In this document: one piece after another, positions 45,703 to 57,814 of the stretch
How positions within the stretch are numbered: position 1 is the first letter of the stretch
Layout: every line of letters starts with the position of its first letter
Assembly (NCBI GenBank): GCA_006383075.2
Contig: SMNH02000006.1
Location: 3,899 to 67,898, forward strand
DNA length: 64,000 nucleotides
Origin: Kordia sp. TARA_039_SRF
GTDB taxonomy: Bacteria; Bacteroidota; Bacteroidia; Flavobacteriales; Flavobacteriaceae
Direction of reading: 5' to 3'
Made by a program: the position numbers and the translations under genes
The notes under the pieces: model-generated
What the model saw: only the letters and a program-made list of their open reading frames with translations
What the model was told of the DNA's origin: nothing
The model's database searches: none

Positions 45703-47148
45703 ATGAAAAAGATTCTTAACTATATCAACGGAAGTTATGTTTCGCCGAAAAGCGACGAATGGATTGACAATTACAATCCGTCCAATGGAGAAATCTACGG
45801 ACAAATTCCAAACTCATCTGCGGAAGATGTAGAAGCAGCCTATCAAGCAGCCAAAGCGGCGTTTCCCAATTGGTCACAAACCACCATCGATGAACGCAGT
45901 CGTATTCTTGATAAAATTGCTTCTCTAATTTCAGAAAACTTAGCAGATTTAGCACATGCAGAATCTTTAGACAATGGAAAACCGCTCAGTTTGGCGACGC
46001 AAATAGACATTCCTAGAGCGACGAGTAATTTTAAATTCTTTGCACAAGCTATTACACAATTTTCAAGTGAAGCCCACGAAAGTGTCGGTCTCAATGCGAT
46101 GAATTTCACACTGCGTCAACCGATTGGTGTTGTAGGCTGTATTTCTCCTTGGAATTTACCGTTATACTTATTCACATGGAAAATCGCACCAGCACTCGCA
46201 GCAGGAAACACAGTAGTTGCCAAACCAAGTGAAGTCACGCCAATGACAGCTTATCTTTTGGGCGATATTTGTACCAAAGCAGGTCTGCCAAACGGCGTTT
46301 TGAATATTGTACACGGTTTGGGACACACTACGGGACAAGCCATTACGGAGCATCCTAACATTAAAGCGATTTCTTTTACAGGTGGAACGGCAACTGGCGC
46401 GCATATTGCTAGAACGGCGGCTCCGATGTTTAAAAAGCTTTCGCTGGAATTGGGCGGAAAAAATCCAAATATCATTTTTGCAGATTGTGATTATGACGAA
46501 ATGCTCAACGTGACCGTACGTTCTTCTTTTGCGAATCAAGGGCAAATCTGTTTGTGTGGTTCGCGAATTTTTGTGGAGCGAAGCATTTATGACAAATTCA
46601 AAACGGATTTTGTAGCACGTGTGAAGCAACTCAAGGTTGGAAATCCGTTTGCGGAAACCACGAAAGTAGGCGCGCTAGTATCAAAACCACATTTAGAAAA
46701 AGTAAAATCATACATAGAAATCGCGAAAGAAGAAGGCGGAACCGTTCTCTGCGGAGGAAACGAAGTTACTGTAGAAGGATTTGAAAACGGATACTATCTA
46801 GAACCAACAGTCATTGAAGTACCAACCGATCAATGTCGCGTCAATCAAGAAGAGATATTCGGGCCAGTAGTTACCATAATGCCGTTTGATACGGAAGCAG
46901 CAGTCTTGCAAATGGCAAATGGCGTTCGCTACGGATTATCAGCTACACTTTGGACAAACAATTTAAACCGAACCATGCGCATGAGTAAACAATTAGAAGC
47001 AGGAATCGTTTGGGTAAACACGTGGTTACTACGCGATTTACGAACACCTTTCGGCGGAATGAAAAACTCTGGCGTAGGACGTGAAGGCGGACTAGAAGCC
47101 CTACGCTTCTTTACTGAGCCGAAAAATGTGTGTATTAAGTATTCTTGA
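45703..47148 (+). CDS. 2-aminomuconate 6-semialdehyde dehydrogenase (ALDH family)
   Basis: The 481-residue NAD+-dependent aldehyde dehydrogenase has ISPWNLPLYL (Asn151), SLELGGKNPNI (Glu249) and GQICLCGSRI (nucleophile Cys283). The family branch (2-hydroxymuconate or 2-aminomuconate semialdehyde dehydrogenase, ALDH8-like) is suggested by GSRIFVERSIYDKF, the C-terminal TPFGGMKNSGVGREGG and the kynurenine context. It would oxidise the unstable product of ACMS decarboxylase. Full length and intact. Confidence 0.9.
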   Translation: MKKILNYINGSYVSPKSDEWIDNYNPSNGEIYGQIPNSSAEDVEAAYQAAKAAFPNWSQTTIDERSRILDKIASLISENLADLAHAESLDNGKPLSLATQIDIPRATSNFKFFAQAITQFSSEAHESVGLNAMNFTLRQPIGVVGCISPWNLPLYLFTWKIAPALAAGNTVVAKPSEVTPMTAYLLGDICTKAGLPNGVLNIVHGLGHTTGQAITEHPNIKAISFTGGTATGAHIARTAAPMFKKLSLELGGKNPNIIFADCDYDEMLNVTVRSSFANQGQICLCGSRIFVERSIYDKFKTDFVARVKQLKVGNPFAETTKVGALVSKPHLEKVKSYIEIAKEEGGTVLCGGNEVTVEGFENGYYLEPTVIEVPTDQCRVNQEEIFGPVVTIMPFDTEAAVLQMANGVRYGLSATLWTNNLNRTMRMSKQLEAGIVWVNTWLLRDLRTPFGGMKNSGVGREGGLEALRFFTEPKNVCIKYS

Positions 47149-47175
47149 TAGTGTTAAGTGTTTGAAATAAAAGGC

Positions 47176-47199
47176 ATCTCGACTGCGCTCGATGTGACA
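47176..47199. repeat. Palindromic intergenic repeat, left flank of the GIY-YIG gene
   Basis: TCTCGACTGCGCTCGATGTG (47177-47196) and flanks form the inverted partner of the copy at 47560-47586: they match as inverted repeats over about 23 nt with two mismatches. It ends 27 nt before the GIY-YIG start. Confidence 0.85.
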
Positions 47200-47225
47200 A
47201 CAGAAAATTCAATTGACAATTTATA

Positions 47226-47537
47226 ATGAAGACATATTACGTATATATCCTCAAATGTAAAGACAATTTATTATATGTTGGAATGACGAATAATTTAGAA
47301 CGCAGAGTAAATGAACATACATCAGGATTCAATAGAAACTGTTTTACATTTTCGAGAAGACCAGTTGAACTAATTTTTTATCAAGATTTTAATGATGTAG
47401 CACAAGCTATTTATTTTGAAAAGAAAATCAAAAAATGGAGTCAAAAAAAGAAATTAGCATTAGTAGAAGGTAACTATGATAGGATACAAATTTTGGCAGA
47501 ATGTAGAAATGCAACTCATTTTAAATACAAAAACTAA
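47226..47537 (+). CDS. GIY-YIG nuclease-domain protein (small, YhbQ-like)
   Basis: This single-domain 103-residue protein has the GIY-YIG core as YYVYILKCKDNLLYVGMTNN, then LERRVNEHTSG (Arg) and a later acidic YFEKKIKKWSQKKK. This is the UPF0213/YhbQ-type branch, often multi-copy in Bacteroidota. By family it should be a Mg2+-dependent endonuclease. It is bracketed by inverted copies of a palindromic repeat at 47176 and 47560, with no other gene inside, so gene plus repeats form a unit of about 410 bp. Confidence 0.9.
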   Translation: MKTYYVYILKCKDNLLYVGMTNNLERRVNEHTSGFNRNCFTFSRRPVELIFYQDFNDVAQAIYFEKKIKKWSQKKKLALVEGNYDRIQILAECRNATHFKYKN

Positions 47538-47559
47538 TAATATATATAATAACAGAAAG

Positions 47560-47586
47560 TGTCAGTTCGAGCGCAGTCGAGAACAC
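47560..47586. repeat. Palindromic intergenic repeat, right flank of the GIY-YIG gene
   Basis: TGTCAGTTCGAGCGCAGTCG plus AGAAC reads as the conserved ends of the repeat family (CAGTTCGAG ... TCGAGAAC) with a minimal CGCAG core. It is inverted relative to the copy at 47176-47199. Confidence 0.85.
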
Positions 47587-47625
47587 TTTGAAACTTTCAG
47601 ATTTAATAACTAATCAAAGTAAAAA

Positions 47626-48414
47626 ATGAACCTAAACATACAAAACAAAAACGCCCTCGTTTGTGGAAGCACGCAAGGCATCGGAAAAGCAGCAGCTATA
47701 GAATTAGCAAATCTCGGAGCAAATGTGGTGTTGACCGCTAGAAACGAAGAAAAACTCAAAAATGTACTTGCTGAATTAGATACTTCAAAAGGACAACAGC
47801 ATAATTACATTGTCGCAGATTTTCAGAATCCTACAGAGTTACAAAAGAAGATTGAAGCGTACATCGCTAATCATCATGCTTTTCATATTTTAGTCAACAA
47901 TACGGGCGGACCTGCTGGCGGGCCAGTTTTTAATGCTAAAATTGAAGAATTTGAACGTGCATTTACACAACACTTAAAATGCAATCATATTTTGGTGCAA
48001 GCGTTGGTTGGTGGCATGAAAGAAGCTGGCTACGGACGTATCATCAATGTAATCTCTACTTCTGTAAAACAACCATTAGATGGTTTAGGAGTTTCGAATA
48101 CCATTCGTGGTGCGGTGGCAAATTGGTCCAAAACACTAGCAAACGAACTAGGTCAGTTTGGAATCACTGTTAACAACGTATTGCCTGGCGCAACGGCGAC
48201 GGAACGCTTGTCAGAAATCATCAAAAACAAAGCTGCCAAAACAGGAAAAACTATTGATGAGGTTAGTGAAGCTATGAAAAACAGTGTTCCTGCAAAACGT
48301 TTTGCAAAGCCAGAAGAAATTGCGAATGCTATTGCATTTTTAGCAAGTGAAGCAGCTTCGTATATCAATGGCATCAACGTTCCTGTAGATGGTGGACGAA
48401 CGAAGTCGTTGTAA
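47626..48414 (+). CDS. SDR-family oxidoreductase with altered catalytic residues
   Basis: The 262-residue Rossmann protein has the nucleotide motif CGSTQGIGKAAAIELA and NNTGGPAGG. At the active site, ISTSVKQPLDGLGVSNTIRG has Ser and Arg where Tyr and Lys of YxxxK are expected. This variant is known in a subgroup labelled 3-oxoacyl-ACP reductase-like. From memory, members of this subgroup lie in kynurenine clusters of Bacteroidota; the reaction is unknown. A downstream copy of the palindromic repeat lies 43 nt after the stop. Confidence 0.87.
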   Translation: MNLNIQNKNALVCGSTQGIGKAAAIELANLGANVVLTARNEEKLKNVLAELDTSKGQQHNYIVADFQNPTELQKKIEAYIANHHAFHILVNNTGGPAGGPVFNAKIEEFERAFTQHLKCNHILVQALVGGMKEAGYGRIINVISTSVKQPLDGLGVSNTIRGAVANWSKTLANELGQFGITVNNVLPGATATERLSEIIKNKAAKTGKTIDEVSEAMKNSVPAKRFAKPEEIANAIAFLASEAASYINGINVPVDGGRTKSL

Positions 48415-48456
48415 AAGTTTGTGACTGATTATAAATTTAAAATGCTGACGCCGACT

Positions 48457-48480
48457 GTCAAATCGAGCGCAGTCAAGATG
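48457..48480. repeat. Palindromic intergenic repeat, third copy
   Basis: TGTCAAATCGAGCGCAGTCA plus AGATG matches the GIY-YIG right flank (TCGAGCGCAGTC core identical). It lies in the 48415-48753 gap, which also holds a perfect palindrome CTCGATTATCGAG (48613-48625) and GTCAATTTTTTGAC near 48652, but no gene that I can see. Confidence 0.7.
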
Positions 48481-48753
48481 CTTTTCAATGTTAAAAATCT
48501 GTAATTAAATTTCCCACAAGCAAAAAAAATCAACTACTTTGGGGCAAGCACACGAAGCATCAAGTAGAAACTATTGAAACATTTCGCCGCAAGCGTTGGA
48601 GTATTTTTTAATCTCGATTATCGAGTAAAACTACCTGACGTTAACATTTTTAGTCAATTTTTTGACGAAAGTGTTAAAAAATCCTTAAATTGGAAACAGA
48701 AAACCGCATTTGCAATCTTTTAAAACGTTGCAAACAAATAAACTAACCAATAT

Positions 48754-49338
48754 ATGGACAGAAGAAACTTTATTGTATCTAGTGTCATTGGAGCAGGAGC
48801 GCTCTCTATGTTTCCTAGCTCGGCACTAGCAAGTAATCAAAGTGTTTCGTTAACTAGCATCGGAAAAGGATTCAACCGTTTGCTACACAACGTAACACGC
48901 ATTTCCATCGCCAATGTATCTGAAAATGTTTTCAATACGCATGCGCGATTGGTAAAGGTACTCAAGCAAGAAGGATACGAGTACAATGCTTCAGAAATGA
49001 TACAGCTCAACAACAATTCGTACGCCATTCCATTACACAAAAATCCAATTTTAGGATTTAAAAGTAAAGAATTGGCTTTGATTGTGCGCCAAAATGGAGG
49101 AAGCAAATTCTACATCTTAAACGAAAAATTAGCAACCGAGTTTGCAGGACTTATTGAAAGTTACAGCGAAAATGCGGAAGGTCACGAATTGAGTTTAGAC
49201 GCAGCTTCTTTTGTATTTCCAACAAAAGTAGTAGCTCAAAAACAAGGAAGAGAAACTATATTTACCTATCAGAATAAGTTTAATAATACAATTACACTCA
49301 AAAGTGCTCGCAAAATGGCGGCAGTAGTTGTAAGTTAA
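48754..49338 (+). CDS. Exported protein of unknown function (194 aa)
   Basis: The 194-residue protein starts MDRRNFIVSSVIGAGALSMF, an RRxF-type signal that could be Tat or Sec, cleaved near SALASN. The mature part is beta-rich with a conserved-looking core (YAIPLHKNPILGFKSKELAL) but no motif I recognise. It is located where flavobacterial kynurenine clusters often carry the 3-hydroxyanthranilate dioxygenase gene, but has none of its features. It is followed by a long hairpin terminator. Confidence 0.75.
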   Translation: MDRRNFIVSSVIGAGALSMFPSSALASNQSVSLTSIGKGFNRLLHNVTRISIANVSENVFNTHARLVKVLKQEGYEYNASEMIQLNNNSYAIPLHKNPILGFKSKELALIVRQNGGSKFYILNEKLATEFAGLIESYSENAEGHELSLDAASFVFPTKVVAQKQGRETIFTYQNKFNNTITLKSARKMAAVVVS

Positions 49339-57360: not shown

Positions 57361-57454
57361 TTCAAAATTTAAAGTTTCAAAGTACTTCTCGATACAAATT
57401 TGCTTCATTTCGGCAAGCTCAATGAGCAGCAAATCCACTCGAAGTGACGGTTTT
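57361..57454 (-). repeat. Variable-core palindromic repeat, copy B1
   Basis: Conserved ends TACTTCTCGATACAAA (from 57383) and TCCACTCGAAGTGACGG (to 57451) enclose an imperfect hairpin core built on ATTTGCT / AGCAAAT. The 5' side carries the shared TTCAAAATTTAAAGTTTCAA block. It is the reverse orientation of the A copies. The whole 57249-57814 stretch is non-coding and consists largely of these copies. Confidence 0.8.
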
Positions 57455-57494: not shown

Positions 57495-57581
57495 GCGTCA
57501 GTTCGAGTGGCGAACGTAGTTCGTTGTATCGAGAACAGCTATGACTTTCTAAAGATTAAGAGTTTACCTAATTCAAAATTT
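57495..57581 (+). repeat. Variable-core palindromic repeat, copy A1
   Basis: GCGTCAGTTCGAGT, a core with the hairpin CGAAC-GTA-GTTCG (57511-57523), and then a 56-nt tail from GTATCGAGAAC (57526) to AATTCAAAATTT (57581). The tail is identical to that of A2 except for one base. Confidence 0.85.
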
Positions 57582-57642
57582 AAAGTTTCAGAGTACTTCT
57601 CGATACAAAATTCTTGCAGAATTTCACTCGAAGTGACGATTT
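57572..57642 (-). repeat. Variable-core palindromic repeat, copy B2
   Basis: Begins inside the A1 tail with the TTCAAAATTTAAAGTTTCAG block. Conserved ends CTTCTCGATAC and CACTCGAAGTGACG enclose the perfect hairpin AAATTCT-TGC-AGAATTT (57608-57624). Confidence 0.85.
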
Positions 57643-57725: not shown

Positions 57726-57814
57726 GCGTCAGTTCGAGTATTTTTCCAATGGAAAAATGTATCGAGAACAGCTATGATTTTCTAAAGATTAAGAGTTTAC
57801 CTAATTCAAAATTT
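57726..57814 (+). repeat. Variable-core palindromic repeat, copy A2
   Basis: Same ends and 56-nt tail (57759-57814) as A1, but the core is a different perfect hairpin, ATTTTTCC-AAT-GGAAAAAT (57740-57758). It ends at the base next to the CHAT gene stop. Confidence 0.85.

What the first reader, a model, noticed from the sequence alone, without database searches (positions are those of the whole stretch)
47176..47586. GIY-YIG nuclease gene bracketed by inverted palindromic repeats
The two flanks match as inverted repeats over about 23 nt (two mismatches), and each is itself palindromic (TCGA...TCGA around a GCGCAG-type core). With only the nuclease gene inside, this is a compact unit of about 410 bp resembling the pairing of REP repeats with their RAYT enzyme, but with an endonuclease in the enzyme's place. 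Further copies of the repeat without the gene occur at 48457 and, with larger cores, at 57.4-57.8 kb. A nuclease that cuts or spreads its own flanking palindromes would be a new kind of mobile or repeat-maintaining system.
Basis: partly seen in the sequence, partly recalled or inferred. Interest (0 to 1): 0.74.

Follow-up and report, generated by a model that had tools for sequence, protein, structure and literature searches.

The report
Nuclease genes paired with genomic palindromes
A small DNA-cutting enzyme gene sits between copies of a short repeated sequence, and the same pairing recurs with matching variants across many bacterial groups, which suggests a mobile system whose enzyme had not been identified.

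Summary
The 103-aa GIY-YIG gene (47226-47537) lies between inverted copies of a repeat with 75 copies (up to 1 mismatch) in the genome. The genome's four other small GIY-YIG genes lack this repeat, but each has another repeat on both sides.

In 80 relatives found by protein alone (76 with usable flanks), GTC-tagged palindromes of "CGTC REP" type flank the gene on both sides in 34/76, against 7/823 control ORFs. Flank-to-flank similarity without any motif: 55/75 against 23/776. Protein and repeat similarity correlate (0.44, permuted maximum 0.24), also after GC correction.

In Azospirillum lipoferum, gene plus repeats sit between sufB and sufC; five relatives read there have neither the gene nor a tagged repeat.

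Di Nocera et al. [quoted passage not shown] My ten open-access searches showed no paper linking GIY-YIG genes to REPs.

Best reading: the nuclease recognises its own repeat family and drives copying of repeats and gene by cut-and-repair. Association, co-variation and presence/absence are shown; cleavage and copying route are inferred. The window's repeat is a weak hairpin on its own, and its 410-bp unit seems a reduced form of a larger arrangement.

The parts
47226..47537 (+). small GIY-YIG nuclease gene, 103 aa
   Evidence: PF01541 69.8 bits; residues Y7, G19, T21, R27, H31, E65, K76 invariant in the 57 aligned rows; AlphaFold2 mean pLDDT 89
47173..47199 (-). left repeat (REP_B), TGTC tag on the - strand (complement of 47196-47199), tag facing the gene
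47560..47588 (+). right repeat (REP_A), TGTC tag at 47560-47563, tag facing the gene
47150..47172 (+). possible remnant of a second, left-hand REP_A that is present in the sister genomes G002 and G003 (inference)
   Evidence: comparison by eye of the ALDH-SDR junctions
48456..48485 (+). solo copy of the repeat without a gene
57383..57449 (-). larger-core repeat of the related type (TTCTCGATAC...CACTCGAAGTGACG)
57496..57539 (+). larger-core repeat, inverted to the previous one
57593..57638 (-). larger-core repeat
57727..57772 (+). larger-core repeat, inverted to the previous one
45703..47148 (+). left neighbour: ORF called aldehyde dehydrogenase (ALDH) here, name recalled; marks the orthologous site
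47626..48414 (+). right neighbour: ORF called short-chain dehydrogenase (SDR) here, name recalled; marks the orthologous site

Best explanation
The gene encodes the dedicated enzyme of a REP-like repeat family. The small GIY-YIG nuclease recognises the tagged repeat of its own family, alone or as the longer cruciform that a pair of copies can form, and nicks or cuts there. Repair of the break by copying from another repeat-flanked site spreads both the repeats and, less often, the gene, in a homing-like way: the repeat is both target and homology arm. Repeat pairs without a gene would be its non-autonomous derivatives. Shown here: bracketing, co-variation of protein and repeat, shared orientation of solo pairs and gene-bracketing pairs, presence/absence of the unit at orthologous sites, conserved presumed catalytic residues. 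Inferred: that the repeat is the substrate, the cut, and the copying route. Not explained: how a repeat first reaches a site that has none.
For: Strict tagged palindromes on both sides 34/76 vs 7/823 control ORFs; density 0.55-0.60 per 100 nt beside the gene vs 0.013 beyond 2 kb. Isolated control ORFs 6/185, shuffled flanks 0/1520. Motif-free flank similarity 55/75 vs 23/776; long direct repeats (score >=30) 24/75 vs 5/776. Palindrome on at least one side or similar flanks 70/76. Protein vs repeat similarity 0.44, permuted max 0.235; GC removed 0.432, permuted max 0.242. Nearest protein relative at another site has the same repeat class in 13/17, shuffled mean 3.9, max 11 in 2000 shuffles. Tags outward in 25/37 gene-bracketing pairs and 43/58 solo pairs. 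Unit between sufB and sufC of A. lipoferum, gene and tagged repeat absent from 5 of 5 relatives read. Sister-genome site with a repeat but no gene. Two distinctive repeats in 19 and 14 of 40 relatives, all among the 29 with a small GIY-YIG match. Closest solved folds UPF0213, then Slx1, a structure-specific nuclease, at E 0.003.
Against: No cleavage data. The window's repeat is a poor single-strand hairpin. Within the genus, repeat number does not follow the gene cleanly: G010 has 28 copies and none of its five genes is of the matching class. The 25-mer beside one of the five genes here (L004) occurs nowhere else in the genome. Gene-less Shinella and Novosphingobium sites and 2 of 4 gene-less Sphingobium sites read hold no such repeat, so copying into an existing repeat does not cover all cases. 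No target-site duplication was seen in Azospirillum. Six of 76 cross-phylum genes showed neither sign.
Confidence: 0.6

Rival explanations
1. Passenger: the repeats are moved by another enzyme (a RAYT-like or IS transposase, or host recombination), and the GIY-YIG gene rides inside repeat arrays.
For: The gene often has long direct repeats on both sides (24/75) and sits within alternating arrays in some loci, which recombination alone could expand. Cleavage is not shown.
Against: Protein clade tracks repeat family, also between distant groups and after GC correction. The only Y1 transposase match in this genome is weak (28.6 bits) and has no copy of this repeat in its 3.2-kb locus; the loose detector found two palindromes there, the stronger about 260 nt past the match. 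Di Nocera et al. found CGTC repeats not associated with transposase genes.
Confidence: 0.17
2. Maintenance without mobility: an Slx1-like structure-specific nuclease that resolves cruciforms formed by the repeats, so that genomes rich in them keep the gene close to them.
For: Closest folds after UPF0213 are Slx1 (E 0.003) and, weakly, UvrC (E 0.12); strong hairpin in the canonical class (one sequence, z -5.7).
Against: It does not explain why the gene itself is bracketed, why gene and repeats appear together at a new site, or why several paralogues with different repeats coexist in one genome.
Confidence: 0.15
3. Regulatory hairpins: the repeats are terminators or RNA-stability elements of the nuclease gene.
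For: The right-hand repeat starts a median of 13 nt after the stop codon in 37 bracketed genes.
Against: Upstream copies are about as frequent as downstream ones (45/76 and 46/76); several families are dispersed far from the gene; no Rfam match at 46900-48800.
Confidence: 0.04
4. Chance proximity in a repeat-rich genome.
For: Repeats are common between genes in this genus.
Against: Control ORFs, shuffled flanks and changed tags.
Confidence: 0.01

Closest known systems
REP-RAYT systems (REPtrons, REPINs)
   Same: Short tagged palindromes in intergenic regions, often in inverted pairs; an enzyme gene bracketed by the repeats; repeat-specific enzyme genes where several repeat families coexist (stated for RAYTs in PMC3733652); solo pairs like non-autonomous derivatives (recalled for REPINs).
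   Different: The enzyme is a GIY-YIG nuclease, not an HUH tyrosine transposase; the tag is CGTC/TGTC, not GTAG.
CGTC-tagged REP superfamily (Di Nocera et al. 2013, PMC3733652; includes dRS3 of Neisseria)
   Same: Tag, 8-9 bp stem, CC(A) tail and inverted dimers match the repeats beside many of the relatives; a gonococcal member of the gene lies among GTCATTCCCGC copies of that type.
   Different: That paper reports no dedicated enzyme. The window's own repeat has the tag but not the stable stem.
Free-standing GIY-YIG homing endonucleases
   Same: Same superfamily; gene with sporadic presence at orthologous sites, in places flanked by duplicated repeat sequence.
   Different: The presumed target is a dispersed repeat, not one conserved gene; no intron; cleavage not shown.
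UPF0213 proteins and Slx1
   Same: Nearest sequence and fold relatives among solved structures.
   Different: Not known to me to be tied to repeats (recalled, not searched further).

Membership tests
GIY-YIG nuclease superfamily (PF01541) | GIY-YIG domain with conserved Tyr, Arg, His/Tyr and Glu (residue roles recalled) | tested here: met
   69.8 bits, cut-off 22.6; Y7, G19, R27, H31, E65 invariant, Y17 at least 90% in 57 rows
CGTC REP superfamily | CGTC, TGTC or CCTC tag at one end | tested here: met
   Window repeats begin TGTC; GTC-tagged palindromes beside 57 of 76 relatives
CGTC REP superfamily | 8-9 bp stem with short loop, tail near CCA | tested here: not met
   Window repeat: 4-bp stem, 6-nt loop, not better than shuffles. 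Among strict GTC palindromes of the relatives' loci, which have stems of 8 or more by definition, 282 of 314 have tail CC or CT. So the window's repeat is called CGTC-like, not a member.
CGTC REP superfamily | inverted dimers of one predominant orientation | tested here: met
   43 of 58 solo pairs in the relatives' loci have tags outward
RAYT REPtron | HUH tyrosine transposase between the repeats | tested here: not met
   The gene is GIY-YIG; the single weak Y1 transposase match of the genome lies elsewhere without this repeat
Homing endonuclease | presence/absence at an orthologous site | tested here: met
   ALDH-SDR junction: gene in 4 of 11 genomes; sufB-sufC: 1 of 6 read
Homing endonuclease | insertion into its own recognition site | tested here: inconclusive
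   Empty sites with a repeat: Kordia G002 at the L005 site, two Sphingobium. Empty sites without: two other Sphingobium, Shinella, Novosphingobium, Azospirillum
Homing endonuclease | cuts the empty allele | not testable with these tools
   needs protein
DNA transposon | terminal inverted repeats with target-site duplication | tested here: inconclusive
   Inverted ends in many loci; no duplication recognised in Azospirillum
Known defence system | match to a PADLOC model | tested here: not met
   0 families for 3 of 3 proteins scanned

The most novel reading that the evidence does not exclude
Small GIY-YIG nucleases are the missing dedicated enzymes of the CGTC-type REP superfamily: a class of minimal mobile elements, found in many bacterial phyla, in which a roughly 100-residue endonuclease rather than a transposase spreads its own palindromes by cut-and-repair, with several independent enzyme-repeat pairs in one genome.
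Probability: 0.65. Interest if true: 0.92.

Novelty: new variant of a known kind. Interest (0 to 1): 0.85.

Why it matters
CGTC-type REPs, including the dRS3 repeats of Neisseria, were reported from five phyla in 2013, and that survey left open what mobilises them. A matched enzyme makes this testable with a small protein and a short oligonucleotide. If right, it adds a second, chemically different route by which bacterial genomes acquire dispersed palindromes, and gives a function to a large group of small GIY-YIG proteins now annotated mostly by domain.

Tried and rejected
Ideas dropped. (1) That all small GIY-YIG genes here share the window's repeat: 1 of 5. (2) That each bracketing repeat is a dispersed family: the L004 25-mer occurs only twice (up to 3 mismatches), both beside that gene. 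(3) A strong single-copy hairpin in the window. (4) A known RNA family: none at 46900-48800. (5) A defence system: none. (6) Double-tagged palindromes as the general empty site: seen in two Sphingobium plasmids, but 2 of 314 rows elsewhere, one palindrome read on both strands. Simple deletion between repeat arms would give the same result. (7) Shinella and Novosphingobium comparisons were too diverged to define boundaries. (8) Phages: 18 records, none covering 80% of the protein and all under 60% identity.

Limits of the counts. Of these 80, 4 were dropped for short flanks (5 where 250-nt flanks were needed). Six of the 80 matches have a stop codon inside. The backwards tag CTG also gave an excess (13/76 vs 3/823); I read this as the conserved CC(A) tail seen from the other end. 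The repeat classes S, T, U, V, W were drawn up after looking at the flanks; 74 of 80 genes were long enough to use and 49 of the 74 could be labelled. Searches use no such classes, but only the 61 of 80 loci with a detected repeat. Syntenic sites were joined generously, which lowers n to 17. The group names I assigned from record titles. Repeat counts by genome share ancestry and are not independent. The negative-control loci L067 and L068 have short flanks on one side.

Full report
What is in the window. A 103-aa GIY-YIG gene (47226-47537 +) lies between two dehydrogenase-like ORFs (names recalled), bracketed by inverted copies of a 27-30 nt repeat. The core TCGACTGCGCTCGA has 54 exact and 21 one-mismatch copies in the 4.59-Mb genome, none for the reversed pattern. 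Many copies form divergent pairs 47-48 nt apart. The genome is probably a Kordia: a same-genus genome, G002, has a 950,822-base contig equal in length to a Kordia periserrulae contig found independently. That is inference.

The genome's other copies. Nine GIY-YIG matches exist: five small genes and four proteins of 462-612 aa, one UvrC-like (name recalled). Only the window's gene has this repeat. The other four small genes have other repeats on both sides, read by eye: CTGAACTTGTTTCAG palindromes (66 copies with up to 1 mismatch; 3 exact, two of them beside the gene); GTCATTCCTGC...GCAGGAATC (55 copies with up to 2 mismatches); TTCTCGATAC...CTCGAAGTGACG types (not counted genome-wide); and a 25-mer found only beside its gene. 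The four longer genes and five loci with weak small matches in distant relatives have no tagged palindrome in the loci held, apart from one in L007 about 460 nt from the match.

Cross-phylum test. A protein-only search of one genome per species returned 80 loci. With a strict detector (GTC tag, perfect stem of 8 or more, loop 3-16), 34/76 genes have a palindrome within 150 nt on both sides and 57/76 on at least one. Control ORFs of the same loci give 7/823 and 93/823. Changed tags GAC and AGC give 0/76 on both sides; the backwards tag CTG gives 13/76 vs 3/823. Control ORFs isolated from other ORFs give 6/185, shuffled flanks 0/1520. With no motif at all, the two flanks resemble each other in 55/75 genes and 23/776 controls. 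Counting either sign, 70/76 genes qualify; the six that do not are L110, L139, L146, L147, L152 and L159. The 34 with both sides fall into 16 groups by title, 4 of them unnamed. Several loci missed by the strict detector carry GTCATTCTGAG...CGAAGAATC types by eye.

Architecture. The nearest bracketing pair has tags outward in 25/37, and solo pairs far from the gene in 43/58: the same plan with a short spacer in place of the gene. The two repeats of one gene are more alike (0.84) than shuffled partners (0.49, highest 0.61 of 1000). The window's gene has the minority arrangement, tags inward. Long direct repeats around the gene are common (score 30 or more: 24/75 vs 5/776). In G002 the gene and one repeat lie between 63-nt direct copies, 95% identical. 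The window seems to have lost the left copy (inference).

Matching of enzyme and repeat. Among 74 genes of this genome and its relatives, the five repeat classes (49 labelled rows) need 6 changes on the protein tree, 5 within the genus. Some of this is shared ancestry of sites. After joining sites with any homologous neighbour, the closest protein at another site has the same class in 13/17 (shuffled mean 3.9, max 11). Without classes, protein and repeat similarity correlate across 61 loci: 0.44, permuted max 0.235; GC-corrected 0.432, max 0.242.

Presence and absence. The ALDH-SDR junction has the gene in 4 of 11 Kordia genomes. Of the seven without, G006 has a repeat pair, G007 a larger-core repeat and G004 a degenerate one, by eye; the other four show none. 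G006 and G009 have a copy (broken in G009) about 1-2 kb upstream. At the L003 site the gene is in G000, G001, G002 and G007, amid repeat arrays, and missing from six others whose junctions were read; several of those keep degraded repeats. At the L005 site the 90%-identical G002 has a repeat at that position and no gene; a further repeat lies upstream in both genomes, and other gene-less genomes vary. In Sphingobium, seven plasmids carry the gene between fnrL and a response regulator (one frame-shifted by the two-piece match). Two of four gene-less ones read hold a single palindrome with a tag at both ends; the other two hold none. In A. lipoferum the gene sits between sufB and sufC with a repeat pair on each side. 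Of 115 plasmid records matching this stretch, 1 covers 80% of it. Five Azospirillum relatives read there have neither gene nor tagged palindrome; one, B510, has an untagged 11-bp palindrome. Their hits cover 51-55% of the query at 90-98% identity. That favours gain of the whole unit, though no target duplication was recognised.

Repeat numbers. The window's repeat (17-mer, up to 1 mismatch) is found in 19 of 40 relatives and the GTCATTCCTGC type in 14 of 40. All are among the 29 genomes with a small GIY-YIG match and none among the 11 without. Five of those 29 have only weak matches. G012 has exactly four copies of the second type: a pair around its gene and one solo pair 24 nt apart. Within the genus the fit is loose. 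Counts of the window's repeat run from 1 to 100; G010 has 28 with no gene of the matching class among its five, and G007 has 76 with only the sister clade's gene.

The protein. The presumed catalytic residues are conserved and the model is confident (mean pLDDT 89). Only two UPF0213 structures match below E 0.001; Slx1 follows at 0.003 and UvrC at 0.12 (sequence search agrees). A structure- or sequence-specific nuclease is plausible; neither was tested.

Literature. Di Nocera et al. 2013 (PMC3733652: abstract, CGTC section, transposase section and passages read) define the CGTC repeats and state that they apparently lack a dedicated transposase. Passages only were seen of the 2006 GIY-YIG phylogenomics paper (no 'palindrom'), the 2025 RepRanger paper (neither 'nuclease' nor 'GIY'), a Bradyrhizobium REP paper (no 'GIY' or 'nuclease'), a Moraxella paper that lists a RayT and a GIY-YIG gene in one clade table without linking them, and a mollicute paper. 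The other hits of the ten searches were seen as listings.

Verdict. Association and co-variation are strong. Gain of the unit is supported in one recent case. Cleavage and mechanism are inferred. For membership, the window's repeat is CGTC-like only, because the stem criterion was not met.

Noticed in passing
L070:10880-11157: A dispersed repeat of about 200 nt near the L005 gene, with many copies at 77-89% identity in the Kordia genomes. Not identified.
   Followed up: no
L003:1417-1785: The repeat upstream of this gene is open in frame and could add MSFLRRQEST... to the N-terminus in automatic annotation.
   Followed up: no
L175, L177 (ALDH-SDR junctions of G010 and G007): The gene-less junctions are filled with short tandem units such as CCCAAAA and AACAAAG.
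   Followed up: no
G000:C4:204024-204375: The two repeats beside the L001 gene share a loop variant (TTGTTT) found in only 3 exact copies in the genome; 62 of the other 63 copies read TTGATT.
   Followed up: partly
L268: In a Planktothrix plasmid the gene, amid GTCATTCTGAG repeats, lies between an MmeI-type enzyme and DISARM drmA.
   Followed up: no
L046, L048, L060, L099, L102, L107, L110, L125, L153 and other loci: Several family members are interrupted by stop codons, as expected of a gene that is often lost.
   Followed up: partly
Moraxella catarrhalis, PMC9465073 (passages): A pangenome table lists a RayT gene and a GIY-YIG gene among genes found only in one clade. Whether either is tied to repeats was not looked at.
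   Followed up: no
plasmid collection, NZ_CP119142.1 and similar records: Some records filed as plasmids have chromosome size (2.2-4.9 Mb).
   Followed up: no
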